A DNA stretch of 64,000 nt from Acinetobacter boissieri (GTDB taxonomy: Bacteria; Pseudomonadota; Gammaproteobacteria; Pseudomonadales; Moraxellaceae): contig NZ_FMYL01000005.1 of NCBI RefSeq assembly GCF_900096955.1, positions 62,001 through 126,000 on the forward strand. The letters are read 5' to 3'. Position numbers and translations under genes: made by a program. The first letter of the stretch is position 1; each line of letters starts with the position of its first letter. Shown piece after piece: positions 6,746-38,173 of this stretch. The notes beneath the pieces were generated by a model that was given only the letters and a program-made list of their open reading frames with translations, searched no databases and was not told where the DNA came from.

Positions 6746-6754
6746 GTGTTTGAG

Positions 6755-7864
6755 ATGAATCAATGGCAAGCCGAGCAACCATATAACCAACTGCCACAGC
6801 TACCACCTGAGCAAGATGTCGAAACAAAGGTGGTTTTAAAAGCATGTATCACGGCGAACAAAGCCCTTGCCGAGTTAAAACAGGCAGGCGAGTTAATCCC
6901 TAATCAAAACATGCTCATTAATATCATTCCATTGCTTGAGGCTAAAGACAGCTCAGAGATTGAAAACATTGTCACCACTACAGACAAGCTATTCCAACAT
7001 GCACAAGGCAATGATGATACTGCCGACCATTCAACCAAAGAAGCCCTACGCTACCGTACTGCATTGTATAAAGGCGTACAGTCAATTAAAGAACGTCCAT
7101 TGTCTACAGGTACAGCCATAGAGATATGCCAAACGCTTAAAGGTGTGGATTTAGGTATTAGATCGACAACAGGTACAGCATTAAAGAATAGCTACACTGG
7201 TGAGGTGATTTATACACCACCAGTCGGTGAGGACAACATAAGAGGGCTATTGTCTAATTGGGAGAAGTTTATTCACTACAATGATGACCTAGACCCTTTA
7301 GTGAAATTGGCAGTATCACATTATCAGTTTGAAGCAATACACCCTTTTATAGACGGTAACGGACGTACAGGGCGTGTACTCAATGTATTGTATTTGATGG
7401 GTGAGAACCTTTTGAGCTTACCTATACTTTACCTGAGCCGTTTTATTATTCAGAACAAGGCAAAGTATTACGAGCTATTGCTAAATGTGACTAAAGATGG
7501 CGATTGGCAATCATGGATATTATTCATATTACAAGCCATTAAAGTCACCAGTGAGTGGACACTTGCCAAGATTAACGGTATTAAACAGCTACATGAGCAT
7601 ACAGTGGAGTATGTGAAAGCCAATGCTGAGAAAATATATACAAGAGAGCTTGTAGACCTCATATTCGAGCAACCCTATAGCCGTATTAGCAATGTGGTAG
7701 AGAAAGGCATAGCTAAACGTCAATCAGCATCAAACTATCTCAAGAAGCTCACAGAAATAGGCGTACTGGAGGAAATGACAGTAGGCAAAGAAAAGTTATT
7801 TATCCACCCTAAACTATTGGCTTTATTGCAAGACGATAGCCATGGCTTCATGCCTTATGAGTAA
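6755..7864 (+). CDS. Fic family protein (probable AMPylase, class II)
   Basis: A 369-residue Fic protein that probably transfers AMP from ATP to target protein hydroxyls. The active-site motif HPFIDGNGRTGR is intact (about residue 196). An N-terminal S-x-x-x-E-N motif (SSEIEN, about residue 70) matches the inhibitory helix of class II, self-inhibited Fic proteins. A Fic_N domain precedes the core and a winged-helix-like region follows it. I chose the ATG at 6755 over an upstream GTG at 6746 because AGGTG (6744-6748) is well placed as SD. It lies directly behind the 73-bp repeats and is the element's clearest cargo gene. Confidence 0.9.
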   Translation: MNQWQAEQPYNQLPQLPPEQDVETKVVLKACITANKALAELKQAGELIPNQNMLINIIPLLEAKDSSEIENIVTTTDKLFQHAQGNDDTADHSTKEALRYRTALYKGVQSIKERPLSTGTAIEICQTLKGVDLGIRSTTGTALKNSYTGEVIYTPPVGEDNIRGLLSNWEKFIHYNDDLDPLVKLAVSHYQFEAIHPFIDGNGRTGRVLNVLYLMGENLLSLPILYLSRFIIQNKAKYYELLLNVTKDGDWQSWILFILQAIKVTSEWTLAKINGIKQLHEHTVEYVKANAEKIYTRELVDLIFEQPYSRISNVVEKGIAKRQSASNYLKKLTEIGVLEEMTVGKEKLFIHPKLLALLQDDSHGFMPYE

Positions 7865-19412: not shown

Positions 19413-19444
19413 ATTGGGGTAACAACTCGTGTGGCACACCGCTG

Positions 19445-19572
19445 AACGACACATCAGTTGTCATTTTTCAATATAACTAATCAAGACTTTAGTATTTTAA
19501 CGACATTGGATGACATCTCTCAACGACACAACAGCTGTCATTTTTCGCTAATAACGACACAACAGCTGTCAT
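19445..19572 (+). repeat. Transposon left-end TnsB-type binding sites
   Basis: Four 20-bp sites: AACGACACATCAGTTGTCAT at 19445-19464, a diverged copy at 19499-19518 (AACGACATTGGATGACATCT), and two identical copies AACGACACAACAGCTGTCAT at 19522-19541 and 19553-19572. They are oriented opposite to the right-end sites. Spaced sites on one end and abutting sites on the other are typical of Tn7-like elements. Confidence 0.85.
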
Positions 19573-19622
19573 TTTCTTAAGTTAATGTGAGGGGAACGTT
19601 TGTTCTCTCGAATTTTCCTTCA

Positions 19623-21356: not shown

Positions 21357-21365
21357 ATGTCCTCT

Positions 21366-22379
21366 TTACATAATGAGTGATAAGTAGCCTTCAAGGCTCC
21401 AGATGTTTTTATTTACTGTGAATGAAGAGTTACTTAATGAAGAGTAGACTACAGACTCGTCATCTGTTGTTCCACGTTCTATAGCTAAGTAATTTTTTGC
21501 TTTGCCATCAATAATAAGATTCTTGGCCGAATCGGAAAGTGCATACGTGATGATTGTGACTGGCGCTCCCAGTCGGTGACATTTGGCCATAAGTTTTGGT
21601 TGAATATGCTCATCATTGAATCCATATCCAATACACAAGTATGATCCTGCCTCATTGATAGCTATATCGGCGTTATTAATGATTGATCGGAATGGTTCAA
21701 GATGTGTTTTTTGATACTTTTGAGTGCCAGGAGTCACAATCTGTGGGCTATAATTTTCAGGAATTTCTTGTGCTCCTGAAATTGCAATAGTGTCTTCTAA
21801 TGAAGATTGAAACCAGTCTAGAGAACCATGTACTTTCCAAATATTCACTCTACGAGAGCAGGTTAACTCATCAGGCGTGGTGAGTTGGCGGAAAAAGCCA
21901 TGTGTGAATCCTGTGTAGTGATGAATTTTACTTTGCTCACATGCATATTCTGCCAGTCGATCATAATTTGTAGTGACAATATTTATTTTTTTTAGACTTG
22001 TTTTGAACATATGTTGAAGTAAGCGACTCAACGGAAACATTGAAATATTTTGCAAACCATTTTTGAAAATATTGCAATCTTCAGAGTTAATGAGTGACCA
22101 GGTGGAATTTATGATCTTGCAAGTTAAGTCTTTAGATACATCTACTTGATGGAGTGCTGTTTCAAGATCTACGCCATTTTTAAGTGTTTGGCAGAAATTG
22201 TCCCAAGCTCCCATATCTGCATCAGATAATCCTGAAACATCAGTTTTTTCAGTCAAATGTTGTGCAAGTGCTCCCATTCCCGACATTCCATGTGCTGCCG
22301 AGGCCCCACTACCCAAAATTATGATAGGAGCCTTACCATAATAATCCTGAGCCTGTTTTTCATAATTAATATTAGACAA
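21366..22379 (-). CDS. SIR2-domain NADase of a SIR2-HerA defence pair
   Basis: A SIR2-family protein of ~337 residues. NAD-binding motifs are IIILGSGASAAHGMSGMGAL near the N terminus, VTTNYDRLAEYA, the catalytic-type KVHGSLDW, and GYGFNDEHI. In phage defence, such SIR2 domains cleave NAD after infection. The frame runs upstream to a TTG at 22427 without an SD; the TTG at 22379 has AAGGA seven bases upstream and is preferred. It is first in a two-gene operon with HerA. Identification as a Nezha-type SIR2-HerA system rests on this pairing. Confidence 0.87.
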   Translation of the reverse strand: MSNINYEKQAQDYYGKAPIIILGSGASAAHGMSGMGALAQHLTEKTDVSGLSDADMGAWDNFCQTLKNGVDLETALHQVDVSKDLTCKIINSTWSLINSEDCNIFKNGLQNISMFPLSRLLQHMFKTSLKKINIVTTNYDRLAEYACEQSKIHHYTGFTHGFFRQLTTPDELTCSRRVNIWKVHGSLDWFQSSLEDTIAISGAQEIPENYSPQIVTPGTQKYQKTHLEPFRSIINNADIAINEAGSYLCIGYGFNDEHIQPKLMAKCHRLGAPVTIITYALSDSAKNLIIDGKAKNYLAIERGTTDDESVVYSSLSNSSFTVNKNIWSLEGYLSLIM

Positions 22380-22427
22380 GATATTATCCTTTAATATTAT
22401 TGAGTTAGTATTTTTTGGTTGGTTCAA

Positions 22428-22774
22428 GTGTAAAGATGTATCTTGTTGTAACTTACAAAAAAAGATAAGTCAAATATACATTTATGTCAGCAGTAAAATT
22501 TAATTGAATCAAAATAAATGGATAAGAAATGAAGGAGGAGGTATGAGGAATACACCTCAATGACATAGTTTTCTTTTGAGTGCTCGCTATCATTGCCTTG
22601 AAAACAGTAAAAAATAAAACCGATATGTCATGTGATGTCGCTGAGTGACGAATGCGTTTTCGTTACTACTGTTTTTTAAATGGGATTGAGGTTTTGCGAC
22701 AGTTTGTGTCTTCCATGCCTTGTTTTATTACGCATGCGCTTTATTATTAAAATCTTTGTTAGAGATAATTTAAT
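22428..22774. other. Intergenic region between SIR2 and the split gene
   Basis: About 350 bp between divergent genes, presumably with both promoters. It holds a short possible leader ORF (ATG near 22542 after GGAGGAGGT, six codons) and paired AAAACAGTA / TACTGTTTT segments near 22602 and 22668 that could form a large hairpin. A GATGTCGCTGAGTGACGA stretch near 22634 faintly recalls transposon-end sequence. Nothing is firm. Confidence 0.35.
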
Positions 22775-23242
22775 ATGAATTTAGGCTTAAAAGAACTTAT
22801 AGCTGAAATTGCTCTTTCCTCATCAATAAAAGAAGCAGCAGAATTATACAAAATATTTGAGGGTATATTAAAAGACTATGTTTTTATCTTAAGTTTTGAC
22901 AAATCTTCAGCTGCTATTCCAGGTCTTGCAGTAGATAAAAATTTTTCAAAGACAGGTGCCATAAGAGGTTTATATAAATATAATAATGTATTCGTTTTAA
23001 GTGGGAAAACTGTTGATTCCTTATTATCTGGGAAGAAGGAGGAGATTCCAATTGACTATTCTATATCTTTGGATACACAAGCTGTAAGTTATTTATATTC
23101 ATATTTTTTTGATAGAAATAATAATAGATTGCCAGGAGACCTGGATGAATTTTTTAGGTTTATTATAGAGCCAGATGTAAATGTTGATCCTATCCCTCAC
23201 TTGACTGAGAATACATATAACTTAAAATCTGGTGTAATTTAG
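22775..23242 (+). CDS. Unknown protein, first part of a probably frameshifted gene
   Basis: A 155-residue frame starting MNLGLKELIAEIALSSSIKE; family not recognised. It ends in NLKSGVI followed by TAG. In the next frame the downstream sequence (NLDEIYDVKLAYEMFRNLD) is open across this stop and leads straight into the 23275 frame. The two are therefore probably one ~413-residue gene broken by a single-base change around 23221-23236. It is divergent from SIR2-HerA. Confidence 0.6.
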   Translation: MNLGLKELIAEIALSSSIKEAAELYKIFEGILKDYVFILSFDKSSAAIPGLAVDKNFSKTGAIRGLYKYNNVFVLSGKTVDSLLSGKKEEIPIDYSISLDTQAVSYLYSYFFDRNNNRLPGDLDEFFRFIIEPDVNVDPIPHLTENTYNLKSGVI

Positions 23243-23274
23243 ATGAAATTTACGATGTTAAGCTTGCTTATGAG

Positions 23275-24018
23275 ATGTTTAGAAATTTGGATGTTGAGGC
23301 ATTTAAGAATGAGAATAAACTAAAATTCAATAAAACTGATTTTGAGATTCAGCAAATAGCTCAGCAGCAAATGTCTCAAGAAATATTTAGGTTAACTAAT
23401 GAACAGTTTAATATTGAGTATGAAAGAATGTTTCATGAGCAATATATAATTATTTTAATAATTGCTATTATTCGATGGAAATATAGTAAAAAATCAATTT
23501 ATACAAAGATCTACACCTACTTTGAGATGAATCAAAAGTATCTTGGTTTGATGTCTGTCCGTGATGCAAATCTTGCATATGCTATTTTTTCAAATAAATC
23601 TAATTTCTTTGGAAAAATTCAAAAGAATTCTGACGAATTGGTTAGAAAGATGAAAGCTATGGCATGGGATATTTTTCATTTTAGATATTTAGAGAAAGCA
23701 TCTACATTTTCTCTTAGTAAAAATGCGGATTATTTCTTTCCTGCATTATGTAGCTTTGATGACGAGTTTGTTAAATTAATTGATTTTTATAAACTTAGTG
23801 GGTTGGTTTATAATAAGGAAGACTCTGATATTTATCCATTTTATGCTTTTGGTATGGATGATATGGTAGAGCTAAGTGATAAACATAAAATGCAAATTCA
23901 AGAGGCATTTTTTACATCTGATGCTATTATTGAAAGACAAAATACTTGTGAAAATAAAAGAATGAGATTTAATCAGTCAGTTCTTGAGCTAGAGGAAGAG
24001 TTTTTTAATCTTATATGA
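23275..24018 (+). CDS. Unknown protein, second part of a probably frameshifted gene
   Basis: A 247-residue frame (from MFRNLDVEAFKNENKLKFNK). It has a hydrophobic stretch IIILIIAIIRWKY near residue 55 and is otherwise charged and helical. The frame is open back to about 23221, overlapping the end of the preceding frame, with no RBS before the ATG at 23275; this supports a frameshifted single gene. Function unknown. Confidence 0.6.
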   Translation: MFRNLDVEAFKNENKLKFNKTDFEIQQIAQQQMSQEIFRLTNEQFNIEYERMFHEQYIIILIIAIIRWKYSKKSIYTKIYTYFEMNQKYLGLMSVRDANLAYAIFSNKSNFFGKIQKNSDELVRKMKAMAWDIFHFRYLEKASTFSLSKNADYFFPALCSFDDEFVKLIDFYKLSGLVYNKEDSDIYPFYAFGMDDMVELSDKHKMQIQEAFFTSDAIIERQNTCENKRMRFNQSVLELEEEFFNLI

Positions 24019-24027
24019 GATAAGCAC

Positions 24028-24216
24028 ATGAGCACCGTTTTTGACCCTATTGTGTCTGAATTTGATAGTTTCGACCACGAAGCAGAATATAACGCATGGT
24101 TTAGAGCTAAAATAGAAAAGGCATCTACTGACTCACGCCCAGCTGTGCCACATGATCAAGTCGTTGCACACCTAAAAAAGCGTCGTGAGGAACGAGAAGC
24201 AAATACTAATCGTTGA
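24028..24216 (+). CDS. Orphan PaaA2/ParD-like antitoxin
   Basis: A 62-residue acidic-then-basic protein. SEFDSFDHEAEYNAWFRAK and RPAVPHDQVVAHLKKRR closely match the stability-determinant/PaaA2-type antitoxins that partner ParE toxins. No toxin gene follows; the next 180 bp contain only a hairpin and the end of tniQ. It therefore appears orphaned, or it could act on a ParE elsewhere. Confidence 0.7.
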   Translation: MSTVFDPIVSEFDSFDHEAEYNAWFRAKIEKASTDSRPAVPHDQVVAHLKKRREEREANTNR

Positions 24217-24260
24217 GTTCATACTTAATACTGTCTCATTTAATAGATGTTTAGATTAAA

Positions 24261-24290
24261 TTCGCACCCAAATAATTACTTGGGTGCGAA
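24261..24290. terminator. Hairpin between antitoxin and tniQ
   Basis: Perfect 10-bp stem, TTCGCACCCA (24261-24270) and TGGGTGCGAA (24281-24290), with an AT-rich loop. It is placed between convergent genes. No strong T-run. Confidence 0.55.
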
Positions 24291-24399
24291 GCCATCTTAA
24301 CTTATATAAAAAGTTGGATTTCAGCTAGTGGTACTATCTTATGATGTATGAGATAAGGAAAACCTTAGTATCTGCCTAAACAATTGATTTAAAAATATA

Positions 24400-26391
24400 C
24401 TAGGTAAAGCTGTAGCCATCATTTTGCTTTTTAAGTAATTTTAATACATCTTCTCTTCGATATAAATTTAATGAATTTGATTCGCCAAAAGATATGGAAT
24501 CAATTTTTCCTTGAGCTTTGAGATTAATGATGTGAGTGCGGTGCATACCTAAAACCTTACTAGCTTCGATTGCTGTCATATATTCTTTTTGAAGAGTTTT
24601 TACTTGATTTATATCGTCCGTCTTTACAAACTTCCAGTACACAAAATCATACAGTTTTAGATAGCCTGTTTTAATCCAATTAATATGTAACCAATTGATT
24701 GCACATCCTAATTCTTTTGCAGCATCCTCTAGAGAAATAAAGTCTTGACGATTAAGCTCAGTTATCAAAGTAGATACAGAGGCTTTTTCTACCCTAATAA
24801 CTAAGTGGCAGTGTTTATCTTTTTTTAAGATCCCCTTTTGAACAAGTACAGCTACTTTTGATGGGCTGATATGTAATTTCGAACTTGTATGTCTTAATGA
24901 AAAATATAAAGTTGGATCTGATTCATAATGAACCAATTTTAATCTTTTTTTTGAGGGACGACCTGTATATGTTTCATAAATTTTGAGGTCATTGATCATT
25001 TCGGTGGTAATGCATTCAATATCAGTTTGTTGATAAAGGTTTGTTCTCAATCCATCAATGTGAGGGCCTCCTACAGGCTCAATGCCAAAATGCTTTAGCT
25101 TATCGGCTAGATTTGTAGAATTAACATTCAGCTGGCAAGCTAAGGTTCCAACAGAAATATATTTTTTGCTAAATTCTTCTATGATTTCTGGCAGTCCTAC
25201 ATTTTTTACATGTCCATCCACTTTCTTTTTATCAAGTTTTAACCAACCTTTGACACCAAGGTCTCGAACTATTTCCTTATGAATTTGCAATTGACCTGCA
25301 ATTTCTGGAAGTGTGAGAAGATCGCCTTTTGGAATATCTTGTACACATGAAGATAGTAAAGGTACTTTATGCGATTCGTCTAGCAGGAGCCGTTCAATAT
25401 CAATACTACTAATATTTATAAGCCCTCTAGCATTTTTTATGGTGTCTAATTTTTCTTTTTGAATTAAGGTTTTCAATCTAGTATAGGAAATATCTAGAAT
25501 AGTCCTTGTTTGATCCAAAGAAAAAAACTGTTTTAGATGATTTGTTGCAGGTTGAGCAACATGAATGCAATTGGCCAATATAGAGTTTGCATATTCACGT
25601 AGTATTGAACTTTGTTTCTTTAAATAGACAGCCTGAATTTGAGGATGTGCTTCAGAAACTCTTGAATTAATGATATGAATAAGTGTTTTCTTAGATTGTT
25701 CAGGATTTGTGAAATATTCATATGCCATTTGAATACGTTGATGATCGGCATCAATATCATTAGATTTCCAGTCAAACTTTTCTAAAGCTAGCCAATAATC
25801 TGATAATTGATTAATAACGTTTTGATCGCCATGGTATATGGTATCTATGAACCATTGTATTGCTTCAGAATTCTTTAAATTGGTTGGTAGGATTCGTAAG
25901 TCTTGTCCACAACTATGACAAAAAACAATTTTATTCCTACTAATATTGAGAGATTTTTTACATGTTGGACAGCAATCATATAACTGTGTGCCATGTTTCA
26001 AACACACAGTGTAAGGGCGGAGTAACCAATGACGTCTCCAATAAGATTGTTCACTTAAACATTTAGGGCAAAAAGCCTGAACATCTTTTCGAAATAAACT
26101 GTGCTTTAAAATAATTTTAGAATATTTTCTTGGCATAGCTTGAGTAGAGCCACTTAGTGCAAATGCTAATGATGTATATTCATCAGATAAGCCTAGTAAC
26201 TGAAGTAGTTTTCTAAATCTCTTTTGATGAGTTACATGACTACTGAGTGTTGTGGAAGGACTGCTTGACTGAATTTTACAAAGAGAATAAACGCTAGAGA
26301 ATCCATTGGCTTCCGCAGCTCTAATTAAAAGACTGGCTGCACTTTCATCTGGATAGGGTATAGGTTTGATTAATAAAGAATAAGAATTCAT
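24400..26391 (-). CDS. tnsD: TniQ/TnsD-family target-selection protein
   Basis: A 663-residue protein. The N-terminal TniQ domain opens with PIPYPDESAASLLIRAAEAN and has a zinc finger near residues 110-165 (FCPKCLSEQSYWRRHWLL, CLKHG, CCPTCKKS, FCHSCG). The long C-terminal part contains repeated HTH units, for example LTLPEIAGQLQIHKEIVRDL and MTAIEASKVLGMHRTHIINL. TnsD binds the chromosomal attachment site and recruits TnsC. The size and HTH tail suit a site-specific TnsD, here probably reading the nrdB 3' end. ATG overlaps the tnsC stop by 4 bp. Confidence 0.88.
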   Translation of the reverse strand: MNSYSLLIKPIPYPDESAASLLIRAAEANGFSSVYSLCKIQSSSPSTTLSSHVTHQKRFRKLLQLLGLSDEYTSLAFALSGSTQAMPRKYSKIILKHSLFRKDVQAFCPKCLSEQSYWRRHWLLRPYTVCLKHGTQLYDCCPTCKKSLNISRNKIVFCHSCGQDLRILPTNLKNSEAIQWFIDTIYHGDQNVINQLSDYWLALEKFDWKSNDIDADHQRIQMAYEYFTNPEQSKKTLIHIINSRVSEAHPQIQAVYLKKQSSILREYANSILANCIHVAQPATNHLKQFFSLDQTRTILDISYTRLKTLIQKEKLDTIKNARGLINISSIDIERLLLDESHKVPLLSSCVQDIPKGDLLTLPEIAGQLQIHKEIVRDLGVKGWLKLDKKKVDGHVKNVGLPEIIEEFSKKYISVGTLACQLNVNSTNLADKLKHFGIEPVGGPHIDGLRTNLYQQTDIECITTEMINDLKIYETYTGRPSKKRLKLVHYESDPTLYFSLRHTSSKLHISPSKVAVLVQKGILKKDKHCHLVIRVEKASVSTLITELNRQDFISLEDAAKELGCAINWLHINWIKTGYLKLYDFVYWKFVKTDDINQVKTLQKEYMTAIEASKVLGMHRTHIINLKAQGKIDSISFGESNSLNLYRREDVLKLLKKQNDGYSFT

Positions 26392-27341
26392 AGAGCAATC
26401 CTCATCTGACTGGCCAAAATATTACGTGACATTTTGAAAGGATCATTTTTGGTCAAACTGACTTTAGCTGTAGTTCCTTGTAACCATGCGTTGCTAAAAT
26501 CATCACTTGTAATAATTTCTCTATTATCTTTAAGGGCAAATAGTACACTATCTTTGATGAGTGACATGATAAAGGCTGGATTGCCAGCAGTAGCAGCATA
26601 AAGCTGTGTAGTTATTAGAGGAGAGCTTAAACTCTGATAAAAAGAGATTTCACATCTGATTTTGATTTGATTTTCTACTTCAGCAAGAAATGGAAACATT
26701 GAGCCGTATGATGTAGATGAACCTAGTGTCATAGCATGCAATGGATAATGATATTGAAATCGACGGGTTAGCTGTGAATCCATTTCTAATAAGGGAACAA
26801 ACTGTGATAGACCAACCAAGCAGAAGCTAATTTGTGTTTCATTAACGATTGATTTAATCCAATCACAAACCACAATATTTAATTTAGTCATGGTTTTTTG
26901 AAAACGAAATAGATGATGAAATTCATCTAGAAAAACCAGTCTGGTTTCACATTGGCGAAGTAAATGACACAGGCGCAACGAGATTTGAGTGGTATTTCCA
27001 GATGCTGGGTTAGGATCTCCTAGTTCTTTGAGTAGCATACTTGCCACTGATTTAACTGATGCTGGAGATGGAATTTGAGCATAAAATGCTGGAATAATAG
27101 TTTTTTCATAGCCCTCAATGAGAGTTGTATAAGACGGCATTTTTTTGATAATGGCTCTACAAAGTAAAGTTTTACCATGACCGCCGTCGGCATGTAAAAT
27201 ACTGCCGATAGGCTCTTGGTAGAGTTGACTTTTTTCCATGCATTCAGTAATACCATGAAATGCATGATTAAATTCTGGATGGCTTACAATGAAGCGATTG
27301 ATTTGAGCAACTCGTTCAAGAATAGATATTGAATGATTCAT
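26388..27341 (-). CDS. tnsC: TnsC-like AAA+ transposition regulator
   Basis: A 317-residue AAA+ ATPase linking target choice to the transposase. Walker A is HADGGHGKTLLCRAI (near residue 50), Walker B is TRLVFLDEFHHLF (near 135), and an Arg-rich QLTRRFQYH lies further on. The frame is open 20 codons upstream, but the ATG at 27341 has GGAG seven bases upstream and lies one base after the tnsB stop, so it is preferred. Translationally coupled to tnsB and tniQ. Confidence 0.9.
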   Translation of the reverse strand: MNHSISILERVAQINRFIVSHPEFNHAFHGITECMEKSQLYQEPIGSILHADGGHGKTLLCRAIIKKMPSYTTLIEGYEKTIIPAFYAQIPSPASVKSVASMLLKELGDPNPASGNTTQISLRLCHLLRQCETRLVFLDEFHHLFRFQKTMTKLNIVVCDWIKSIVNETQISFCLVGLSQFVPLLEMDSQLTRRFQYHYPLHAMTLGSSTSYGSMFPFLAEVENQIKIRCEISFYQSLSSPLITTQLYAATAGNPAFIMSLIKDSVLFALKDNREIITSDDFSNAWLQGTTAKVSLTKNDPFKMSRNILASQMRIAL

Positions 27342-27342
27342 C

Positions 27343-29181
27343 TTAGATCTCCATTGAAGAGAATGCTGTATAGCCATCGGTGGCTTGCTGTTCTTCCGCA
27401 ACGATTGGGGGTGGCTTAATTGGCATTGAAAGATTTTTAATTTCTTCAGGAAAATCTATTACTAGTTGGCGTAATTTAGGCTTTTTCCTCTGTAAATCTT
27501 CTTGGATTTTTTTCAGTAAATGCCAACGGGCAAGTAGATTAGCCTTTTCACCTAAACGTGTAACATCAGCTTGAGCCATCTGTTTTTTGATTTTTTGTGC
27601 TTCTTGATGAGCATATATAGTCAAACCCTGTGCATAACTAGGATTGGTGCATTCAGCTTTGATGAGATTAGTTGGATCATTCGGATCAACGATAAATACA
27701 TGCCCTAAATCTATTTCATCAACAAGTACAATCACTTTGGTGAGCTTCTGTTGTTCAAAGGTTGCTAGAGCAGGGGAAAAATAATACAAGTAGTCGATTA
27801 AGACACGTCCCTTGTTAATGCTACGCTCGTAAGGTTTTCGGCATAGTACAGATGCCTCATCATCTGAAAGCGAAGTTGGTTTGACGATTTTTGTGGCGTC
27901 TTCCCAAGCAAGTATAGGTATACGATTGGTTTCAGAATGAATACGTGTGTGGTAAATCTCATTGATCCATTGCTCTGCATATTTCTGAACATCTGCAAGT
28001 GTCATTTTGGCAGTTTTACTGGCGTTATAATCTCCTCTTGCTGTGGAATTCGAGAAAGTTGTACCAGATAGTTTTTGAGTTAAATCTTCAGTTAGTGTTC
28101 TAAAGAAGCTTTCAATATGCGGTTTATTATTTGGTGTACCGACTTGAGAAGGTGTAATGGTAATCTTTAAAGTTTCACATAGTCGTGCAAAAGAATTATT
28201 TTTGAATTCCACGCCATTATCGGGGACAATTTGACTAGGAATTCCCCCAGATAAGCCCTGATAAGATCGAGTGATCATATTCCTAATTACACATAACGTC
28301 GTTAGAGCACTTGGTGGATATAAACTAATGTAAATTCCAACGATGGCTCGGGTATAAACATCAATAGCACATGATAGGAATGGACGGCCTAAAATGGCTC
28401 CTGTTATATCATCAATGATAATGATATCCAGGTAATGGGTATCAATTTCCACCAAAGCCATTACGGTTGGGCTGATGATGGATTGTCCAGCAGCTTTGAG
28501 TAATTTTCTTGCAGTACGAGATCCTTTTTTGGCGTTAATTACTACATAAGGATCTAAACGATTGATACGACGCTCAATCGTTCGTAAACAAGGGATTTTA
28601 TGTGATGTCCAGCCATGTTCCATGGCTTTTCCAACAATAAATGCCAGTACATCTTTACCATCTCGTCGCTCAGAACGGAGGTAAATTTCTTGGATGGCTT
28701 GATGGATTAGACGTTCGATTTCTAAAGAAAATCGGACATAATGATTACCGGATTTTTTCTTTTCAAGAGATTCTGTGCACTGATTACTTAGTAGATATAC
28801 TCGAATCCATCGTGCAACAGATCTAGGGTTTGGTGGTATCTGGTCTTGAATCTCTTTGGCAATCTGCTGAATTAATATCGTTAATGGTTGAACTGCAGTT
28901 GGGCGTGGCAGCTTAGATAGAGCTGCTTGTATATACCTAAGTTTACGTATTCTTTTTGCTGTCATCTCAGGATTAACTAACAAATTTGATGTATTAAAAT
29001 CATATTCAATCTGACCAGACTTATACCATTCTTCAAACTGATGATATGGAATTTGAAATATACGACCACCAGCGATCGCAGAATATCGGCATATACCATG
29101 ACCGATAAAGCTAATTTCAAACTGTGAACCGTGAAATAAAAAACGAGTACCAATACTGGGAATAGGAATGGAAGTATTCAT
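27343..29181 (-). CDS. tnsB: TnsB-like DDE transposase
   Basis: A 612-residue Mu/TnsB-type transposase. Catalytic residues are the Asp in ALVEIDTHYLDI (about 245), the Asp in SQIVPDNGVEF (about 325) and the Glu in NKPHIESFFRTL (about 360). N-terminal HTH regions bind the transposon ends, and a Mu-C-like barrel follows the core. It makes the 3'-strand breaks and joining. ATG overlaps the tnsA stop (ATGA). Confidence 0.93.
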   Translation of the reverse strand: MNTSIPIPSIGTRFLFHGSQFEISFIGHGICRYSAIAGGRIFQIPYHQFEEWYKSGQIEYDFNTSNLLVNPEMTAKRIRKLRYIQAALSKLPRPTAVQPLTILIQQIAKEIQDQIPPNPRSVARWIRVYLLSNQCTESLEKKKSGNHYVRFSLEIERLIHQAIQEIYLRSERRDGKDVLAFIVGKAMEHGWTSHKIPCLRTIERRINRLDPYVVINAKKGSRTARKLLKAAGQSIISPTVMALVEIDTHYLDIIIIDDITGAILGRPFLSCAIDVYTRAIVGIYISLYPPSALTTLCVIRNMITRSYQGLSGGIPSQIVPDNGVEFKNNSFARLCETLKITITPSQVGTPNNKPHIESFFRTLTEDLTQKLSGTTFSNSTARGDYNASKTAKMTLADVQKYAEQWINEIYHTRIHSETNRIPILAWEDATKIVKPTSLSDDEASVLCRKPYERSINKGRVLIDYLYYFSPALATFEQQKLTKVIVLVDEIDLGHVFIVDPNDPTNLIKAECTNPSYAQGLTIYAHQEAQKIKKQMAQADVTRLGEKANLLARWHLLKKIQEDLQRKKPKLRQLVIDFPEEIKNLSMPIKPPPIVAEEQQATDGYTAFSSMEI

Positions 29182-29891
29182 AGATCTACTCCCAGCATAA
29201 GATGATTATTTTTGGAATTTTTGATTTGAATGATTTGATGGAAAAGCAAATAGTCTGCAAGTTGTGGAGACAATTGGTCTTTTTCTAAAATGCTATACGC
29301 TTGTTCTAGATCATCCAATTCATAGCGAATCAAGAGGTCTCGTGCCAATTCAATTTCAAGTGATGTCCAGTCCTGAAGATGGCCACGAGAATAAAGATGC
29401 AATAATTGTGTTAGGGATTGGCGTTGGGGTAATGTATTTGCATCAACTAACTTAAAAGGGATATTTATAGACGCCAAAATGGAAGCTAGTCTCTCAAAGC
29501 GTTGCAGGCTTTCTAGGGACAGATGTTGAATGGATGGCTTAACTTCGTGGACTTCAAAATCACCTTTGTGAGTACGAATCAGAAAGTCAGGATAAAGTTC
29601 CAAATTTTGCCCAATCGGAATTTTTAAGGCCTGTGTTCGATAAGATTGTACGGCAGGATGACTTTCTAGTTGTACAGCATAAGCCAATTCCAGAAAGCTT
29701 TCTAAAGCAACTGAACCACCAGCTTTACGGCTGGGAAAAAGAGAAGTTCGACGTTCTAAGCAGCCTTGATAAATACGACGCTGGCCATGTAGTGTTCCAG
29801 CAATATTTGGTTTTTGATTAAACGCTGAATGGATCTGTTCATGAATGAGTTGCTGTATATGTTGTTGTATGTGGCTTATAGGATAAGACAT
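29178..29891 (-). CDS. tnsA: TnsA-like endonuclease
   Basis: A 237-residue TnsA protein that cuts the 5' strands at the transposon ends and so allows cut-and-paste movement. The PD-(D/E)xK core is visible as the Glu in SVALESFLELAY, YPDFLI, and FEVHEVKPS. The C-terminal domain contacts TnsC. The frame is open to a GTG at 29963, but the ATG at 29891 has GGAG seven bases upstream and gives a TnsA-like N terminus. First gene of tnsABC-tniQ. Confidence 0.9.
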   Translation of the reverse strand: MSYPISHIQQHIQQLIHEQIHSAFNQKPNIAGTLHGQRRIYQGCLERRTSLFPSRKAGGSVALESFLELAYAVQLESHPAVQSYRTQALKIPIGQNLELYPDFLIRTHKGDFEVHEVKPSIQHLSLESLQRFERLASILASINIPFKLVDANTLPQRQSLTQLLHLYSRGHLQDWTSLEIELARDLLIRYELDDLEQAYSILEKDQLSPQLADYLLFHQIIQIKNSKNNHLMLGVDL

Positions 29892-30024
29892 ATTATATCT
29901 CCATGTTTTTGAAGCATATGTATCCATAGAATGTTGTTTTCTAGGGATAAATAAGCCCATCACAGCTAAAAAAGATAGGTGTGAAAGACTTGACGTATGG
30001 TTCTACACAGAAGATACTAAGGGT

Positions 30025-30088
30025 CTCAATCTCTATATTATCTTCGTGTAATGTAGAACTAACGGATCTTTAAAAAGATCCGTTTTTT
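30025..30088 (+). ncRNA. Candidate small RNA with its own promoter and terminator
   Basis: A promoter-like TTGACG (29990-29995), 17-bp spacer and GATACT (30013-30018) precede ~64 nt ending in a strong terminator (AACGGATCTT / AAGATCCGTT, 30061-30084, then T-run). Part of the transcript (ATTATCTTCGTGTAATGTAGAA, 30037 on) can pair with the upstream TTCTACACAGAAGATA. It lies between tnsA and the gp16-like gene on the opposite strand to both. Unsupported beyond these signals; it could be a leader or attenuator. Confidence 0.35.
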
Positions 30089-30111
30089 ATTTATGCGTGA
30101 CTAATTTTTCG

Positions 30112-30336
30112 TTAATTTGTCTCCTTATTTGTATCAAAGTTAAATATAGGAACATTAACTTCTTCTTTTAAACCTAATTTGACTGCTATCTTATGGCTTT
30201 CTCCACGAATGGGAATGTGCTTACTTTTAAGTACGCTATACACAAGATCTGGTGAAAAATTATTTTGACGAGCCCAATCAGCTATTGAGAGTCCACTAAG
30301 TTCGAATTTTCGTCGAATCTCATTTTTATCTACCAT
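30112..30336 (-). CDS. BcepMu gp16-family phage-associated DNA-binding protein
   Basis: A 74-residue HTH protein (IRRKFELSGLSIADWARQNN, DLVYSVLKSKHIPIRGESHK, IAVKLGL) matching the small gp16 family of Mu-like phages and transposons, where it acts as an early regulator. Chosen start is the ATG at 30336; a GTG lies two codons upstream. It is divergent from the Avs1 genes and upstream of tnsA, so it could control transposition or cargo. Confidence 0.75.
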   Translation of the reverse strand: MVDKNEIRRKFELSGLSIADWARQNNFSPDLVYSVLKSKHIPIRGESHKIAVKLGLKEEVNVPIFNFDTNKETN

Positions 30337-30619
30337 AGTCACATTGCCCGAAAAAATTTGGAATAGTTTAAAAATAAGTCAAACCTCGTGGAAGGTCAAC
30401 TTTTTAATTTAGGTAAGATCATGTTTTCTAAGATTATTTTTAATATAATGTGTATTATATAGAAAATTTTTCACTGGAAATTTTTTATAAAACCTTAAAA
30501 ATCATTTGATTATATACATATTGATTTTTAACATCTTGGATAGGGGGAGCACTAATAAGTCAACCACTTATTTTTATTGCTTAATCATAAAATAACTTGC
30601 ATAGCTTAAAAGAGAAAAA

Positions 30620-31810
30620 ATGTTACGAATCAAAATGTATCAAGCAGGTAATGGTGATGCTTTCTTAATATGTACAGATACTACAAATATCCTAATCGAT
30701 GGTGGTTATGCTAGCTCTTTTATCCAATACATTAAAGATGATTTAATAGAGCTAAATTCAGCAAATAAATTTCTAGAACTTGTTATTACAACACATATTG
30801 ATTCTGATCATATAGGTGGAATACTTAAGTTCCTCAGTTTAAATGGAACTTCGACACAACCATCAATTATTTCTGTTAGTAATATTTGGCACAATAGTTT
30901 ACGTAGCATAACCATGCCTATTGCAGAGCCTTTAGAGTTAGAAAAAAATCGAAGTTTGCTTCAATCCATCCATGATAGAGGTCATCCTAAAATACAATCT
31001 GATACAGATTCCAATGCTGAAAAAATAGGTGCTCAACAAGGTAGTACGCTAGCTACATTGATTCATAATGGGGGGTATCGTTGGAATAATGGTGATGGAA
31101 CGACAAGTATAACTAAAGAAGGTCTAGAATCATTTGCTATAACTGGAGGTATGATTCGAGTTTTATCTCCATCTCAAGATTCTTTAAAATCATTATTAAG
31201 TGAGTGGGAAAAGCAACTAAAAAAATATGGTTTCAAAGGTTCAATATCTTCAGGAGAGCTTATTGATGATGCGTTTGAATTTATGCTAGAGCATATGAAT
31301 GATTATCAAAGAAAAACTCCAAAACCAATTTCTGCAACAACTCGTAAATCCCTTCATGAAATTTATAAACCAGATGATTCTCCTACCAACAAAAGCTCTA
31401 TAGCGACAATTATCGAACTCAATGGTATTCGAATTCTAATGTTAGCTGATGCATGGGCTGAAGATATAATATTTAGCCTTCAAAAGTTAAAGGACGAAGG
31501 ACATTCTATGATTTTCGATGCTATTAAGATTTCACATCATGGAAGCTATCATAATACTAGTCCAGAACTATTGGATCTTATTGATTCACCTGTTTATTTT
31601 ATTTCATCCAATGGGAATAGACATTATCACCCAGATATTGAAACTCTTATAGCTATAGTAGATAGGCCTTCTACATTTCCTAGAACACTTTATTGCAACT
31701 ATGCCACTGTTGCTTCAACAGAACTTAAAAACTATCAAACTAAATCAGAAGCCAAATTTTCGGTTATTGAAAATGCCTGCGACTGGATTGCATTTACGGG
31801 GAATAAATGA
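30620..31810 (+). CDS. avs1a: Avs1a-like metallo-beta-lactamase-fold protein
   Basis: A 396-residue MBL-fold hydrolase, ComEC/Rec2-like in layout. Metal-binding motifs are LVITTHIDSDHIGG (H-x-D-x-D-H variant, about 55-70), LMLADAWAED, KISHHGSYHNTS (about 300) and ISSNGNRHYHPD. It is the first gene of an MBL / protease-NTPase / small-protein trio, the arrangement of type 1 AVAST (Avs1) systems. Its stop overlaps the next start (ATGA). Its exact role in Avs1 defence is not known to me. Confidence 0.82.
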   Translation: MLRIKMYQAGNGDAFLICTDTTNILIDGGYASSFIQYIKDDLIELNSANKFLELVITTHIDSDHIGGILKFLSLNGTSTQPSIISVSNIWHNSLRSITMPIAEPLELEKNRSLLQSIHDRGHPKIQSDTDSNAEKIGAQQGSTLATLIHNGGYRWNNGDGTTSITKEGLESFAITGGMIRVLSPSQDSLKSLLSEWEKQLKKYGFKGSISSGELIDDAFEFMLEHMNDYQRKTPKPISATTRKSLHEIYKPDDSPTNKSSIATIIELNGIRILMLADAWAEDIIFSLQKLKDEGHSMIFDAIKISHHGSYHNTSPELLDLIDSPVYFISSNGNRHYHPDIETLIAIVDRPSTFPRTLYCNYATVASTELKNYQTKSEAKFSVIENACDWIAFTGNK

Positions 31811-34800
31811 TGTTAGAAAGTACAATCAAGATCGCAGTATGCAAAATTAGATGTGGAACAGATTCCGGATCAGGTTGGCTGATCAAACAGAATATTGTCA
31901 TAACAGCATAGCACTGCGTAGAAAATGCAATTAAGGATAGTGATCCTATAAAATTAGGATTTAATTTTTCTGAAAATTCAGATGAATTGACTGCTGAAAT
32001 TATAGACTATGATGAGGACTTAGATATTGCATTGCTCTCATTAAAAAATATTAGTAGCACTTATTTACCAGTCTCTTTCAGTGATTCTCTGCCTGTAGTA
32101 GGTAAAGATTTTTATTCCCATGGCTGGCCAGTCACAAAATTAGAAATGGGTCATCAATTAAAAGGATCAATAGTACAAGTTCTAAATACATTGAAGTTAG
32201 GTAATGATATTGAAATCCAAATAGAAGCTCCTAATTCGCTTGATGACTATAGTGGGCATTCTGGAGCACCTCTCATATGTGATGGTACGTGTTTCGGGAT
32301 AATTCGATACTCGATAGAAAAGACGATTGGTGCGATATCAGTTTTTAGAATTAGAGAATTTTTAATTAAAAATAATATTCTCGAGGAAGAGTTAATTGAT
32401 AAAGGTGTAGAAATACCTAAATTAGCTCCGAGAACTGAATTTAATACGATTTTTGATGAATTTTTAATTAGTAATACGGGTAAATACATCTTTCTAGAAG
32501 GTGCCCATGGTATTGGAAAGTCTACATTTTGTGGGAATTACAGAGCCCAAAATCCTTCAATTGAGAATTTTAATACGTATAGTTTTACGCATAATAGAGA
32601 TCTCATAAACGTTGCTCATTTAGCACAACCAGTTGAATTCGTTAATTGGCTTAACATGCAAGTTTCAATGTTAGTTAATGGAAGCTCTGGAGTTGCATTA
32701 AAAGATGAATATGCTCAACTAATTAAAGAAACTCAGAATGTAATACAAGCTTTAGGACAATATTACAGTTCTATTAATAAAATTGGTGTGCTTTTTATTG
32801 ATGGAATAGATGAAATTGATAAATATGATAGAGAGCTATTTAAAAAATTTCTTGGGTTATTACCTCAAGTGATTCCCTCGAGTCTAGTTATAGTACTTTC
32901 TGCACCAAGTTATACGCAATATTCTGCACTTTTAGGAAATAAATTAAGACAAGAAACCTGTATTACTTTACCTTCTTTGTCCTATGAAATAACTCAACAA
33001 TTTTGCATAGTAGCATTACCTAAAGAGCTGTGTGATCCCGTCATAGTTAAATTAATCTGTGATAAGGCTGAAGGCCATCCTCTATATCTTCGATATTTAG
33101 TTGATCTAGTCAATGATGGTAAAAGCTATGATGATATTTCTAAGCTACCTTTACTAGAAGGCAGCATTCTCAATTACTATGAATCTTTATGGCATCAACT
33201 TTCATCAGACACAGATGGAGTTAATCTTTTAGCTATTATGGTTCGCTTGAGATGGGGAATACCTATTTCACTCCTAGTAACAACATTGAATGCAAATGAA
33301 CAAGCTGTATTAATAAGTACGATTGAGCGTATCAAACACTTACTTTTAAGCTCGGACAATACCAATGTTTATCATTCTTCTTTTTCGGAATTCCTAAAAG
33401 GAAAGACTCATTTACGTGAAAATGATATTCAATTAAGACTTTTTAACTTTTGTGAGAATAGTCCTGACGTTGAGTATGGTATGTTTAATATCATCTACCA
33501 CGGTCTTAAAACTCTAAATAGTGATAAATCTCTTGTTATTAGCTATTGCAATCAAGATTGGGCTGACAAATGTGTTTTAAGAGGGATAAAGCCTGATACG
33601 TTATTAGGCGATATTGAGGATGTCCTTAAAGCCATTACAGATCTTGGAGATTTTACAGAAACTAATCGTATCTTGTTGTTATCTCAAAGAATGAAATTTA
33701 GATATGATACATTATTTGCTCAATCTGCTGATCTTACAGCTAGCGCTTTAATATCTTTAGATAAAACTACAGAAGTATTACAACACATTATTCGTTATAA
33801 GCAATTAATCATACCCATTGAGTTGGCGCTTAAAATCTCTTTACAACTAATAGAAGTAGAAAGCTATAAGGAAGCTCGTATTCTACTAAAGACTATTGAA
33901 ACGAAAATTGCGAAAGTGCTTGAGCTTATTGCTACTGAGGGGCTCTCAATTCCAGACTTCTTGACTTTATTTGATTTGCAGTTGCAGCAGTACATGCTAA
34001 AAAGCCAAGCATTAGTAGAAGGTTCGGATACAGAATTACTTAAATTCCAACATTACTGGCTAAAGTTGATGAAATCTTGTATTCAAGATGAAGAAGAAAG
34101 TAAGCAGGTTCGTCAATTAATGGCCATCTATTTACAATCAAACTTTATGTGCTTAATGCAACGCCCTTTTCCTTTAGAGGTTTTGAGGGAAATTTATTCT
34201 GGTCCAATCACAGATTATATTGAGCAGTATATTTGGGCTGCAGTTGAATACAATACTAGATGTAATTTTTTTGATATTCCCTATGATCAGAATTTACTTA
34301 ATAAACTTTTCGAAGACATCAACACATTAGTTACAGAAAATGAAGGAACTCTAGGAAAATTTGATTTAGGGATAATTAATTGTTTAATTTCTCTTGGTAG
34401 CCCATCTAATATTATGACTTCAATAGAAGTTGAAAACACGGTTGTAGAATTCCAGAAAATTGCCTTTATTGCTGATGATAATGTTTCTTTAAATGAGACT
34501 GCATTTAATGAGGCTATGTCTCAATGGAGAACACAGGCTTATCTTAGCCCTGATGTACCCAAACCAACTATTCTAGTCTTACTCGAATCAGATTGGATGG
34601 ATTGGCTTTTCTCCCTTACTAAAATTTTAGCATGGTGTGATGGCTTAGCTAGACGATTCAAGGAGGAAAATGATTTAGAACAATTGGATTCAATCTGGAA
34701 GGTGATTCATCAAGATATCTTTCAAAATCTAAAGTTCAGCCTATTTGAACGAGTAAATTGGAAGGATGCCTACGCTTTACCTGAAGCTGTTTTTCCACGT

Positions 34801-37581
34801 ATTTATAAGAATCTAACCTCATTGATTTTAGATATTTTCCTAACTCATATTGGAGAATTAATTAGCTTCATTCAAGATATATTTTCATATCAGTGTGGCA
34901 TCTATTCAGAAGGTTTTAGAGATGTACTAAAAAATGTTCTAGAACAAATTTCTAAATATGAGTTAGAAGATGATGTAGAGGATCTAGCTTTTTCGTTACT
35001 TGAACGTTGGGAAAATTTTATATTATTAAATCTAAAAAATAGGCATGAACTTATCCCTGAACTCTTAACTATAATTCCTTTATACAAACGTTTAAATGCT
35101 TTAGAGAAAGCAAAGGACACCTACAGACATGTCTTGGCATTTTCTATGGGCCCTAACTGGTATAAAGAGGATCAATTGGGATTAGCTGTTAGCACTTTGG
35201 AAGCTATTGATATACAAATGCCTTTAAAGAATGGATTTTTAAGTAAAATTGCGGGATTGTTGGAGGTGTCTAGTGGAGAGATGACCTTTGAACGTTTTGT
35301 TCGATATGCGAAGCGAGACTTCATAAATGCTTTGTGTTTAAGAGGCGAGTTTGATAAAGCTATCCGCTACTATATCCGACAAACTTATGGTTCATTAGGG
35401 CAAATGTATGGGGATATCACTAAAGGTGAGATTGATCGAGTATCTGAATTAGCTGGAACTCGTTTTCCTGGTGGGGCTTTGGATGAACAGGATTCAATAC
35501 TGTGTATTGTACGCTCTGCTATTCCTCATCTAGATTGGCAATTCTGTTGGGTACTTTTAGAAACTTTCCAATTTGGAGATTCTAGATATCTACATAATTA
35601 TGCTGAAGTATATGGAATATTAATACAAATAAATCAAGAAGATGAAAATGCTATCAAAATGATGTTTAGTAGGTTGGAAATTATCTGTGAATCTGAAATG
35701 TGTAAAGATGATCGCTCAGCTTTTTTATTGGCTCTAAAAAAACATATTCCAGAGAGTCTTAAGGAGTCATTTAAAAGTCAATTTGTTTCATATTCTGATT
35801 CATTAAATCCAACAGTAGATGAAATTGAAAAAAAAGCTACTGACTTAGTAGAAAAAAATAATGAAGATAATGATATTAAAGAAAATAATATAGATTCTCT
35901 TTTTACACCGGGAATGTTTGGAACGAGGAACTCTATAAGCCAAGCTAAAGAATTTTTGTCTAATGCTAAAAGATTTATTCGCCGCAAAAATTATTTACAA
36001 GCACAGCAAGAAATATTATCTGCAATAAAAACGATCCAAGATGGTCAATGGTCAATATGGAGTGGTGGTTTACCAGAGGTAAAAGAAGGACAAAATATCT
36101 TAAAGCAAATAACTAGTTCAAATTCAGAGTTGATTAAATTATTTAGTCAGTTAATTCTAAGCGAACGATATTCCAATCCATGGTTTATCGCTGAGAATTT
36201 AATAAGCTGGTTAGCTTCAGAGTCATCATGGGAAGATCAAAATAGATTGATTGAGTTATCTATTGAGCATATTCAACTCATGGTGGGGATGGTTGAAACT
36301 GAAATCAATGATTACGAGTTTCTGGAAGAATCTAATAAAAGTAATATATATGATGACTTCACCAAGCTTATTTTACATGTTATTGATCACCCTACATGGT
36401 TAAGAAGTGAGAAGGCTGCAGATATGTTACTGTGGCTATTGAGAAGTTACCCAAAATATATTCCTTTATTTGGGAATCAAGCCTTTTCTAATAATTTTGG
36501 TAACCATCCTGACATTATTTGTGGAGTATTAGATCAGCTGTCATACTCAGAAGCTAAACTTTGGGGGATATTATCTACTTCCTTGGATTTTGAGACTATT
36601 AAACACAAATGCAAACACATTGGAAGGCTTTCTGTTTTAAAGAAAATCTTAAATCAAGCAATAAAAAATGGAGATCAACATGCTGCTAATGTTTTAGCGC
36701 AATTACAAGAAAATCTTACACAAGTGATTAATCCTACTGATACTAGAAATGTAGCATGTCCAGAATGGGCAATAGGACTTAAATCTAAGTGGTCTAAATT
36801 AAATGTATTAGGTGTTACGAATTCATCTCTAGTAGAGTGTGCAACATCAATAATGCAAGATATATGTTCTCCATTGACATTAAAGACTTGCTTGGGAATT
36901 GAAGAACTATTGGCTCAAGGATATTATGCAAATAAGAATAATCCCATTAGATGGCGAGCAAAAGCACAGTATGCTTTACAGGTTGCACTTCAATCTACAG
37001 CACCTTCTAATTTGCATGAAAAGATTAATGCGATATTTCGATCATACAATCCCACTAGCCTCAATAATTTAAGAATTAAGAATTTTAACTCTCATGGACT
37101 AGCATGGCTAATCGCCCAACCTGAACCTATAAGTGGTGGAAATATTTATCTCGATTATTATGAGAATTTCTGGTATGAAGGTCGTTTAAGAGAAATAAGG
37201 CTGACAGCTTATTTAGGTGATCTATCACAAGTAACTGTACCATCAGGGCGCTTTCTATCAACTGAGAATCCTACATTAAATAGAACATTTCCTGTGGATG
37301 TATGTGCTAATGTAGATCCAGCTTTGGCTTATTTTGGTATTTTTACTCCAGCAATCCCAACACAACATTTTATGCAAATTCTGAGTACAGAAGCTAAATG
37401 CATTAAACGAGCTTGGTGGCGTTCTTCTCGCACTAATGTAGTAACAACTGGAGCACCAGAATCGGCAGGCTGCTATCTTTCTATTGATAAGGATGAGCTA
37501 CAAAAGTTACCTAGGAATATGAATCTATTCTGGATATATGAAATTGATTCTGACGTTGCAGGGTTCATACCTTATAAGTAA
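31807..37581 (+). pseudogene. avs1b: Avs1b-like protease-STAND NTPase with internal TAG stop
   Basis: A ~1924-codon gene. A trypsin-like protease comes first: VITA-TAG-HC marks the catalytic His region, DLDIALL (about 73) the Asp and YSGHSGAP (about 150) the Ser. A STAND NTPase follows, with Walker A EGAHGIGKST (about 232) and Walker B VLFIDGIDEID (about 330). A very long TPR-like helical C terminus is the likely phage-protein sensor. TAG at 31909-31911 interrupts the frame exactly one codon before the catalytic His; the rest is open to 37581. An internal TTG at 31987 without a clear SD could start a His-less form. Annotated as broken unless TAG is suppressed or is a sequence error. Confidence 0.8.
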
Positions 37582-37595
37582 GTAATGGAGAATTT

Positions 37596-37853
37596 ATGGA
37601 TTTTTATGATACCCCGAATACTAGATCAGAATTTGAACATCGGTTCCATTTTTTATTTAACATGATAAATGAAGGTAAATTGAGTGGTGTTTCTATCGAT
37701 GGACTATGCAAAGTCAGATTTCTTCCAAATGGCAGATTTGATTTTCTCAGTGTAAATGAAAGTGCTCGATTACAGGCAAATATGATGCTGCATATGCAGA
37801 AAATGAAATTTCCAGAGAGCGTGGTTGAAAATACAGTCCTAGATAAAGATTAG
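37596..37853 (+). CDS. avs1c: Avs1c-like small protein
   Basis: An 85-residue acidic protein (MDFYDTPNTRSEFEHRFHFL) 14 bp after the NTPase gene, with a good SD (GGAG). It is unrecognised by domain; its size and position match the small third gene of type 1 AVAST operons. The function assignment is by context only. Confidence 0.65.
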   Translation: MDFYDTPNTRSEFEHRFHFLFNMINEGKLSGVSIDGLCKVRFLPNGRFDFLSVNESARLQANMMLHMQKMKFPESVVENTVLDKD

Positions 37854-37980
37854 GTGATTAGTATAGAGATAGAGAAGTTCCTTAATTAATAAAATAGCTA
37901 TGTGTATTGTAAAATGGACAGATCTTTTTCAGCCTGAAAATTTTAAGGCATTTTTTGTAGGGATATGATAATTGAGCAAT

Positions 37981-38009
37981 AAAAAGGAGATCTAATAGAT
38001 CTCCTTTTT
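37981..38009. terminator. Bidirectional terminator after Avs1 operon
   Basis: Perfect 13-bp stem AAAAAGGAGATCT (37981-37993) and AGATCTCCTTTTT (37997-38009) with a 3-nt loop. Symmetric A/T tails let it end the Avs1 transcript and also nrdB transcription entering the transposon from the other side. Confidence 0.85.
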
Positions 38010-38092
38010 AATTTAGTAGCATTGTATGTGTTGCAAATATCAACTCATGTCGTGTTTCAGGTCAATCTAGCTGAGCTCTTTAAGTATCAATA

Positions 38093-38155
38093 TTGACACG
38101 TGTCATGTCGTTCCATGACACGTGTTGTGTCGTTTATGACAACTGATGTGTCGTT
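38093..38155 (+). repeat. Transposon right-end TnsB-type binding sites
   Basis: Three nearly abutting 20-bp sites: 38093-38112, 38115-38134 and 38136-38155, consensus TGACAnnTGnTGTGTCGTT. The outermost, ATGACAACTGATGTGTCGTT, is the exact inverted match of the outermost left-end site. The tip ends CGCACA at 38159-38164. Together with 37854-38173 this is the only content of the gap before nrdB besides the terminator. Confidence 0.85.
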
Positions 38156-38173
38156 CAACGCACACGATAAAAC

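What the first reader, a model, noticed from the sequence alone, without database searches (positions are those of the whole stretch)
31807..37581. Avs1b defence gene carries a TAG stop exactly before the catalytic His of its protease
The reading frame from the ATGA overlap with the MBL gene encodes VITA, then TAG (31909-31911), then HC, where trypsin-like proteases have T-A-x-H-C. The following ~5.6 kb stays open, with intact protease Asp and Ser motifs, Walker A and Walker B. A single base change (for example TGG or CAG to TAG) explains it. The absence of other lesions over 1,890 codons argues for a very recent event, a suppressor or readthrough, a reversible on/off state, or a sequence error. 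An internal start at TTG 31987 would give a His-less protease, possibly a sensor-only form.
Basis: partly seen in the sequence, partly recalled or inferred. Interest (0 to 1): 0.85.

Follow-up and report, generated by a model that had tools for sequence, protein, structure and literature searches.

The report
Broken Avs1b protease in phage-defence operon
A known three-gene phage-defence system carries one stop codon in front of the active site of its activating protease, so this copy has most likely been switched off by an ordinary recent mutation.

Summary
The TAG at 31909-31911 is real: in frame, directly before the catalytic His codon, the only stop in a 1924-codon frame. The genes form an AVAST type 1 operon above NCBIfam cut-offs: avs1a, avs1b, avs1c. 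In 60 of 60 other loci holding this stretch a sense codon precedes the His, with 12 different residues. Recoding has no support: RF1 is present, none of 58 detected tRNAs has anticodon CUA, no relative has a stop there. Damaged avs1b genes exist elsewhere: 6 of 60 whole-gene loci, two of them (L059, L076) with a single nonsense codon in an otherwise open frame. Best reading: a young loss-of-function allele; absence of further stops bounds neutral divergence at about 0.9%. Published work makes the Avs1b protease the activator of the Avs1a pro-nuclease, so this system should be off (inference). A sequence error cannot be excluded. Context: the operon is right-end cargo of an 18.7-kb Tn7-like element that also carries SIR2-HerA; a sister element in genome G058 has another gene beside its right end.

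The parts
30620..31810 (+). avs1a: MBL-fold pro-nuclease, uninterrupted; keeps 100 of 103 positions conserved in >=90% of 25 homologues, including H59-x-D61-x-D63-H64, D277, H306/H307 and I136 (which may correspond to a published gating Ile; that equivalence was not aligned here)
31807..31911 (+). 5' fragment of avs1b: 34 codons, then the TAG
31909..31911 (+). in-frame TAG directly before the catalytic His codon
31912..37581 (+). rest of the avs1b frame, open to its natural stop: remainder of protease, STAND NTPase, C-terminal region
31912..31914 (+). catalytic His codon (His36 of the undamaged numbering)
31987..31989 (+). first in-frame ATG/GTG/TTG start after the TAG (TTG); no strong ribosome-binding site seen by eye
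32023..32025 (+). catalytic Asp codon (Asp73)
32260..32262 (+). catalytic Ser codon (Ser152, GxSG)
32500..32526 (+). Walker A, GAHGIGKST
32785..32814 (+). Walker B, GVLFIDGIDE
37596..37853 (+). avs1c, uninterrupted
19443..38157 (.). Tn7-like element: 21-nt identical inverted ends read by eye, three TnsB-site-like repeats at each end; holds the avs1 operon as right-end cargo
24400..29963 (-). tnsA-, tnsB-, tnsC- and TniQ/tnsD-like genes of the element
19623..22427 (-). SIR2-HerA defence pair, second defence cargo of the element

Best explanation
This is an AVAST type 1 operon whose Avs1b gene has recently been inactivated by one nonsense codon. Shown: the stop is in frame, the rest of the gene and its partners are uninterrupted, relatives have sense codons there, and no suppressor tRNA was detected. 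Inferred: translation started by coupling to avs1a ends after 34 residues, so little or no protease-STAND protein is made. By the published mechanism, the Avs1b protease cleaves gating loops of Avs1a to release its nuclease. Without it the pro-nuclease should stay gated and harmless, and defence should be lost or strongly reduced. Untranslated message downstream may also lower avs1c expression through polarity (inference).
For: Single in-frame TAG in an otherwise complete frame. All 60 relatives holding this stretch have a sense codon plus His. RF1 present; all 58 listed tRNAs were read for anticodon and none is CUA; TAG ends 7 of 44 window ORFs of 150 aa or more, the TniQ-like gene among them (mechanical ORFs). 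Damage is standing variation: of 60 whole-gene loci, 54 have one open frame over the matched stretch and 6 do not: L059 one TGA, L076 one TAA, L060, L056 and L091 frame changes, L081 no 5' half. Past constraint: the window departs from 7 of 214 columns invariant in the other 24 sequences, L054 at like distance from 6 of 213. Mechanism: PMC12799240, Results section read.
Against: No reads, no second strain and no close copy (nearest about 51% identical), so a base-call error cannot be excluded and the event cannot be dated from a sister sequence. The window's 7 of 214 is the second highest fraction of 25 sequences, after L048 (16 of 223); it is also the third most isolated sequence, so this does not show decay, but does not exclude some. 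The column tolerates at least 12 residues, so even slight readthrough would probably give an active protease. No expression data. The cited text shows essential protease active-site residues for Hachiman HamMAB; for Avs1 it shows Avs1a cleavage on infection and the effect of cleavage-site mutants, not a His-less Avs1b.
Confidence: 0.83

Rival explanations
1. The TAG is a sequencing, assembly or single-colony artefact; the organism's gene is intact and the system works.
For: Draft genome of 29 contigs, no reads to inspect, exactly one lesion in 1,924 codons, no close second sequence.
Against: Substitution errors in finished consensus sequence are rare (general knowledge). Single-lesion Avs1b copies are recorded in other genomes, though those could be errors too.
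Confidence: 0.09
2. Leaky or regulated readthrough of the TAG makes a small amount of full-length Avs1b, limiting an autotoxic system.
For: The residue before the His is free to vary (12 kinds among 60 loci), so an inserted residue should be tolerated; the rest of the frame is preserved.
Against: No CUA tRNA among 58; RF1 present; 0 of 60 relatives have a stop there; preservation is equally explained by youth (bound about 0.9% neutral divergence).
Confidence: 0.04
3. Reinitiation at TTG 31987 yields a His-less, sensor-only Avs1b that regulates or titrates rather than cleaves.
For: TTG 31987 is the first ordinary in-frame start after the TAG; the protein from there on still matches Avs1b at 1768.8 bits.
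Against: It would lack about 60 residues; the model of homologue L037 shows strands and helices through that part. All 60 relatives with this region keep the His. No strong ribosome-binding site by eye.
Confidence: 0.03
4. Loss was selected because the active system attacked the host, for instance after a resident prophage supplied a recognised terminase. This is a cause for the best explanation rather than an alternative to it.
For: Avs1 is activated by viral terminase (PMC12799240), and loss of the activator alone would disarm the nuclease.
Against: No match in the own genome to four terminase families at E <= 0.001: PF03237, PF03354, PF05876, PF04466. Other terminase families, a lost prophage or another trigger remain possible.
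Confidence: 0.01

Closest known systems
AVAST type 1 (Avs1), with EpiAvs of Erwinia piriflorinigrans (PMC12799240)
   Same: MBL nuclease gene followed by a protease fused to a STAND protein; Avs1a keeps the MBL metal motif
   Different: Avs1b is interrupted before its catalytic His, so the activating protease is not expected to be made
Interrupted Avs1b homologues L059 (Pseudomonas alcaligenes MRY13-0052) and L076 (Flavobacterium araucananum)
   Same: One nonsense codon, the rest of the matched frame open, Avs1a uninterrupted
   Different: Their stops are TGA and TAA and lie downstream of the protease part
Avs1b of plasmid pHLA, Vibrio parahaemolyticus (L003)
   Same: Best plasmid relative, 48% identical over the whole length, same gene order
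   Different: Uninterrupted; no tns gene is annotated in the 17.6 kb seen

Membership tests
AVAST type 1 (Avs1) | Avs1a MBL-fold partner upstream | tested here: met
   NF041809 525.4 bits against cut-off 420; metal motif kept
AVAST type 1 (Avs1) | Avs1b STAND NTPase with Walker A and B | tested here: met
   NF041810 1768.8 bits against 1500 from TTG 31987 on; motifs kept
AVAST type 1 (Avs1) | Avs1c small third gene | tested here: met
   NF041811 94.5 bits against 70
AVAST type 1 (Avs1) | Complete N-terminal trypsin-like protease with His-Asp-Ser in one open frame | tested here: not met
   TAG directly before His; 60 of 60 other loci with this stretch have no stop there. So it is a broken member, not a working one
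AVAST type 1 (Avs1) | Protects against phage, cleaves Avs1a on infection | not testable with these tools
   needs experiment
Stop-codon recoding / suppressor-dependent gene | Cognate suppressor tRNA, or loss of RF1, or stop conserved among relatives | tested here: not met
   no CUA anticodon in 58 tRNAs (one search scored 150 of 235 first-look candidates); prfA 531.8 bits against 423.25; stop in 0 of 60 relatives
Phase-variable on/off gene | Simple repeat, invertible segment or similar switch at the site | tested here: not met
   no tandem array in 31500-32500; in 31600-32300 two direct pairs and one inverted pair, none overlapping 31909-31911; the wider scan showed only part of its list
Tn7-like element | TnsA/B/C and TniQ-type genes, TnsB-site repeats at both ends | tested here: met
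   target-site duplication sought by eye and not found

The most novel reading that the evidence does not exclude
The TAG is a maintained throttle: rare readthrough at a residue-tolerant position next to the catalytic His makes just enough Avs1b protease for defence while keeping an autotoxic nuclease cascade quiet.
Probability: 0.03. Interest if true: 0.8.

Novelty: new member of a known kind. Interest (0 to 1): 0.2.

Why it matters
Defence-system catalogues call a system present when profiles match. Here NCBIfam passes all three genes over its cut-offs and PADLOC names them, although the protease of Avs1b cannot be made as one piece. With 6 of 60 other whole-gene loci also damaged, presence calls for Avs1 probably overstate working systems unless frames are checked. 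If the throttle reading were true, it would be a new way to control a toxic immune protease.

Tried and rejected
Close copies, to date the event or see the ancestral state: plasmids (one hit, 66.6% DNA identity over 38% of the query; 11 records, best 48% protein identity), E. coli genomes (with the window, with a Citrobacter homologue: none), 175 genus genomes (own only), 369 class genomes (86 have a match at E <= 0.001, only the own one full-length), genome contigs (none by single sequence; 61 loci by two peptide patterns and tblastn, best 51%), viral contigs (one, identical to L074). No sister strain was available.

Autoimmunity through a resident prophage terminase: no support in four families. 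Suppressor tRNA: none. Switch by repeats: none at the site. Out-of-frame reinitiation at ATG 31925 gives only eight codons. Literature: six searches; from titles and abstract starts of the listed papers, none treats nonsense or readthrough in Avs1b. PMC11559045, a Vibrio cholerae anti-phage system paper with six mentions of nonsense mutation, was not opened.

Caveats on counts: L006 was dropped before the alignment, which holds the window and 24 others; several Avs1b starts in that script were set a few codons late. One search's filter found 56 loci; L005, L062, L074 and L082 were added. Five of 65 distinct loci (L049, L081, L094, L095, L096) do not hold the region. L049, L057, L094, L095 and L096 run off a contig end and are left out of the 60 whole-gene loci. 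'Open' for the 54 means over the tblastn-matched stretch, not proven to the last codon. L056 and L091 are MAG contigs, so their frame changes may be assembly errors; the isolate cases could be errors too. The Avs1a match of L060 contains one stop at its very end, read as the natural end. No TnsB-like repeat was found in L159, so G058's left end differs from the window's or is lost.

Full report
Observation. The base sequence and translation confirm a TAG at 31909-31911, in frame with the ATG at 31807 that overlaps the avs1a stop. It follows 34 codons ending VITA and precedes HC. The frame then stays open to 37581. A whole-genome six-frame profile search reports the same thing independently: Avs1b positions 1-1923 of 1924, 2597 bits, one TAG inside.

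Identity. PADLOC and NCBIfam name the three genes Avs1a, Avs1b and Avs1c; NCBIfam scores are above the curated cut-offs, Avs1b even when read only from TTG 31987. Pfam sees only a marginal trypsin match in that shortened window protein (Trypsin 20.7 bits, Trypsin_2 21 bits), whereas an intact relative gives 35.7 and 41.3. An AlphaFold model of the protease domain of the uninterrupted homologue L037 (mean pLDDT 87.1) matches HtrA/Deg and chymase-like serine proteases in the PDB (best E 1.2e-11).

Relatives. I gathered 65 distinct homologous loci: 4 plasmid loci and 61 genome loci; a 66th, from a viral contig, is identical to L074. Sixty of 65 hold the stretch around the His. All 60 have a sense codon followed by His; the residue before it is Y in 18, R in 14, E in 7, F in 5, L in 4, W in 4, D in 2, N in 2, and G, C, S and Q once each. 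So the His is kept throughout and the preceding residue is free; the ancestral residue here cannot be inferred.

Damage elsewhere. Of 60 loci with the whole gene inside the contig, 54 show one open frame over the matched stretch and 6 do not. L059 has one TGA and L076 one TAA with the rest of the matched frame open; L060 has frame changes in the protease part; L056 and L091 (both MAGs) have a frame change; L081 lacks its 5' half. Avs1a is uninterrupted in the first five (in L060 the match runs through its natural end). Avs1b makes up most of the operon, so lesions falling there rather than in Avs1a is what chance would give. The window case is one more of a kind already present in public genomes.

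Age. Of 16,992 possible single-base changes downstream of codon 36, 977 (5.7%) make a stop. Zero further stops bounds neutral substitutions at about 52, or 0.9% per site (95%; assumes neutrality and equal rates, ignores indels). In leave-one-out over 25 aligned sequences, the window departs from 7 of 214 columns invariant in the others (nearest neighbour 51%); L054 (50%) from 6 of 213, L048 (39%) from 16 of 223, L045 (56%) from 3 of 210, L055 (57%) from 6 of 213. The window's fraction is second highest of 25, about what its isolation predicts. The gene was thus under roughly normal constraint until lately, or the stop is an error.

Recoding tests. RF1 is present at 531.8 bits. All 58 tRNA hits of the own genome (which scored 150 of 235 first-look candidates) were read by ARAGORN and none has anticodon CUA. 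TAG ends 7 of 44 window ORFs of at least 150 aa, TAA 30, TGA 7 (mechanical ORFs, one overlapping shadow left out). No tandem array or repeat lies on the codon.

Mechanism. PMC12799240 (Results section read; passages) shows that the MBL partner is a gated pro-nuclease activated by cleavage; that in EpiAvs infection produces a cleavage product of Avs1a; that changing either of two conserved Ile residues reduces defence and changing both eliminates it; and that terminase expression activates the system. In the related HamMAB, substitutions of predicted protease active-site residues abolish immunity. PMC12931631 (passages only) says that the nuclease effectors of Avs1-Avs4 cause cell death on recognising terminase, portal or another phage protein. 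From this I infer that the window's operon is off. The text I read gives no His-less Avs1b, so this step is inference.

Context. The operon lies in a Tn7-like element, about 19443-38157. Six repeats match a TnsB-site-like pattern exactly, three at each end; eight matches were found with up to three mismatches, against 1.18 expected and none of 100 shuffles reaching eight (the pattern was drawn from the right-end copies, so the three left-end copies are the independent ones). The outermost 21 nt are identical in inverted orientation (read by eye); no target-site duplication was found by eye. Cargo includes SIR2-HerA. In G058, of the same genus, the window's 19618-30504 is matched at 92.6% over 10.9 kb, up to the contig end; the left-end repeats are not found there. 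On another contig, the right-end repeats and adjoining ribonucleotide-reductase small-subunit gene (nrdB, named from recall) match at 89%. The gene beside that right end encodes 1079 aa with no PADLOC or Pfam match; that the two contigs join is presumed. No Avs1b was found in that genome. So right-end cargo appears to differ between sister elements. That Tn7-like elements carry defence cargo is known (PMC8649781, listing and start of abstract only).

Verdict. Confirmed observation, ordinary explanation: a recent nonsense allele in a known defence system, sequence error not excluded, recoding unsupported.

Noticed in passing
window 19443-38157: Tn7-like element with two defence cargoes (SIR2-HerA and Avs1) abutting the 3' end of an nrdB-like gene; 21-nt identical inverted ends; no target-site duplication seen.
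   Followed up: partly
L168:221-3460 (G058): Right-end cargo of the sister element is a 1079-aa protein with no PADLOC or Pfam match; candidate unknown defence gene by position.
   Followed up: partly
L059, L076, L060, L056, L091, L081: Other Avs1b loci with stops, frame changes or a missing 5' half: 6 of 60 whole-gene loci.
   Followed up: partly
L131:181-254: A second tRNA-Trp (CCA) between two near-identical tRNA-Leu (TAG) genes, with a D-arm unlike what I recall for usual tRNA-Trp; not a UAG reader.
   Followed up: no
L063, L064, L068, L070, L097: Several distant Avs1 loci show two or three Avs1c-like tblastn matches in a row, suggesting tandem avs1c genes.
   Followed up: no
window 6746-7864: SoFic-type Fic protein, PADLOC match 406.5 bits, outside the Tn7-like element.
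   Followed up: no
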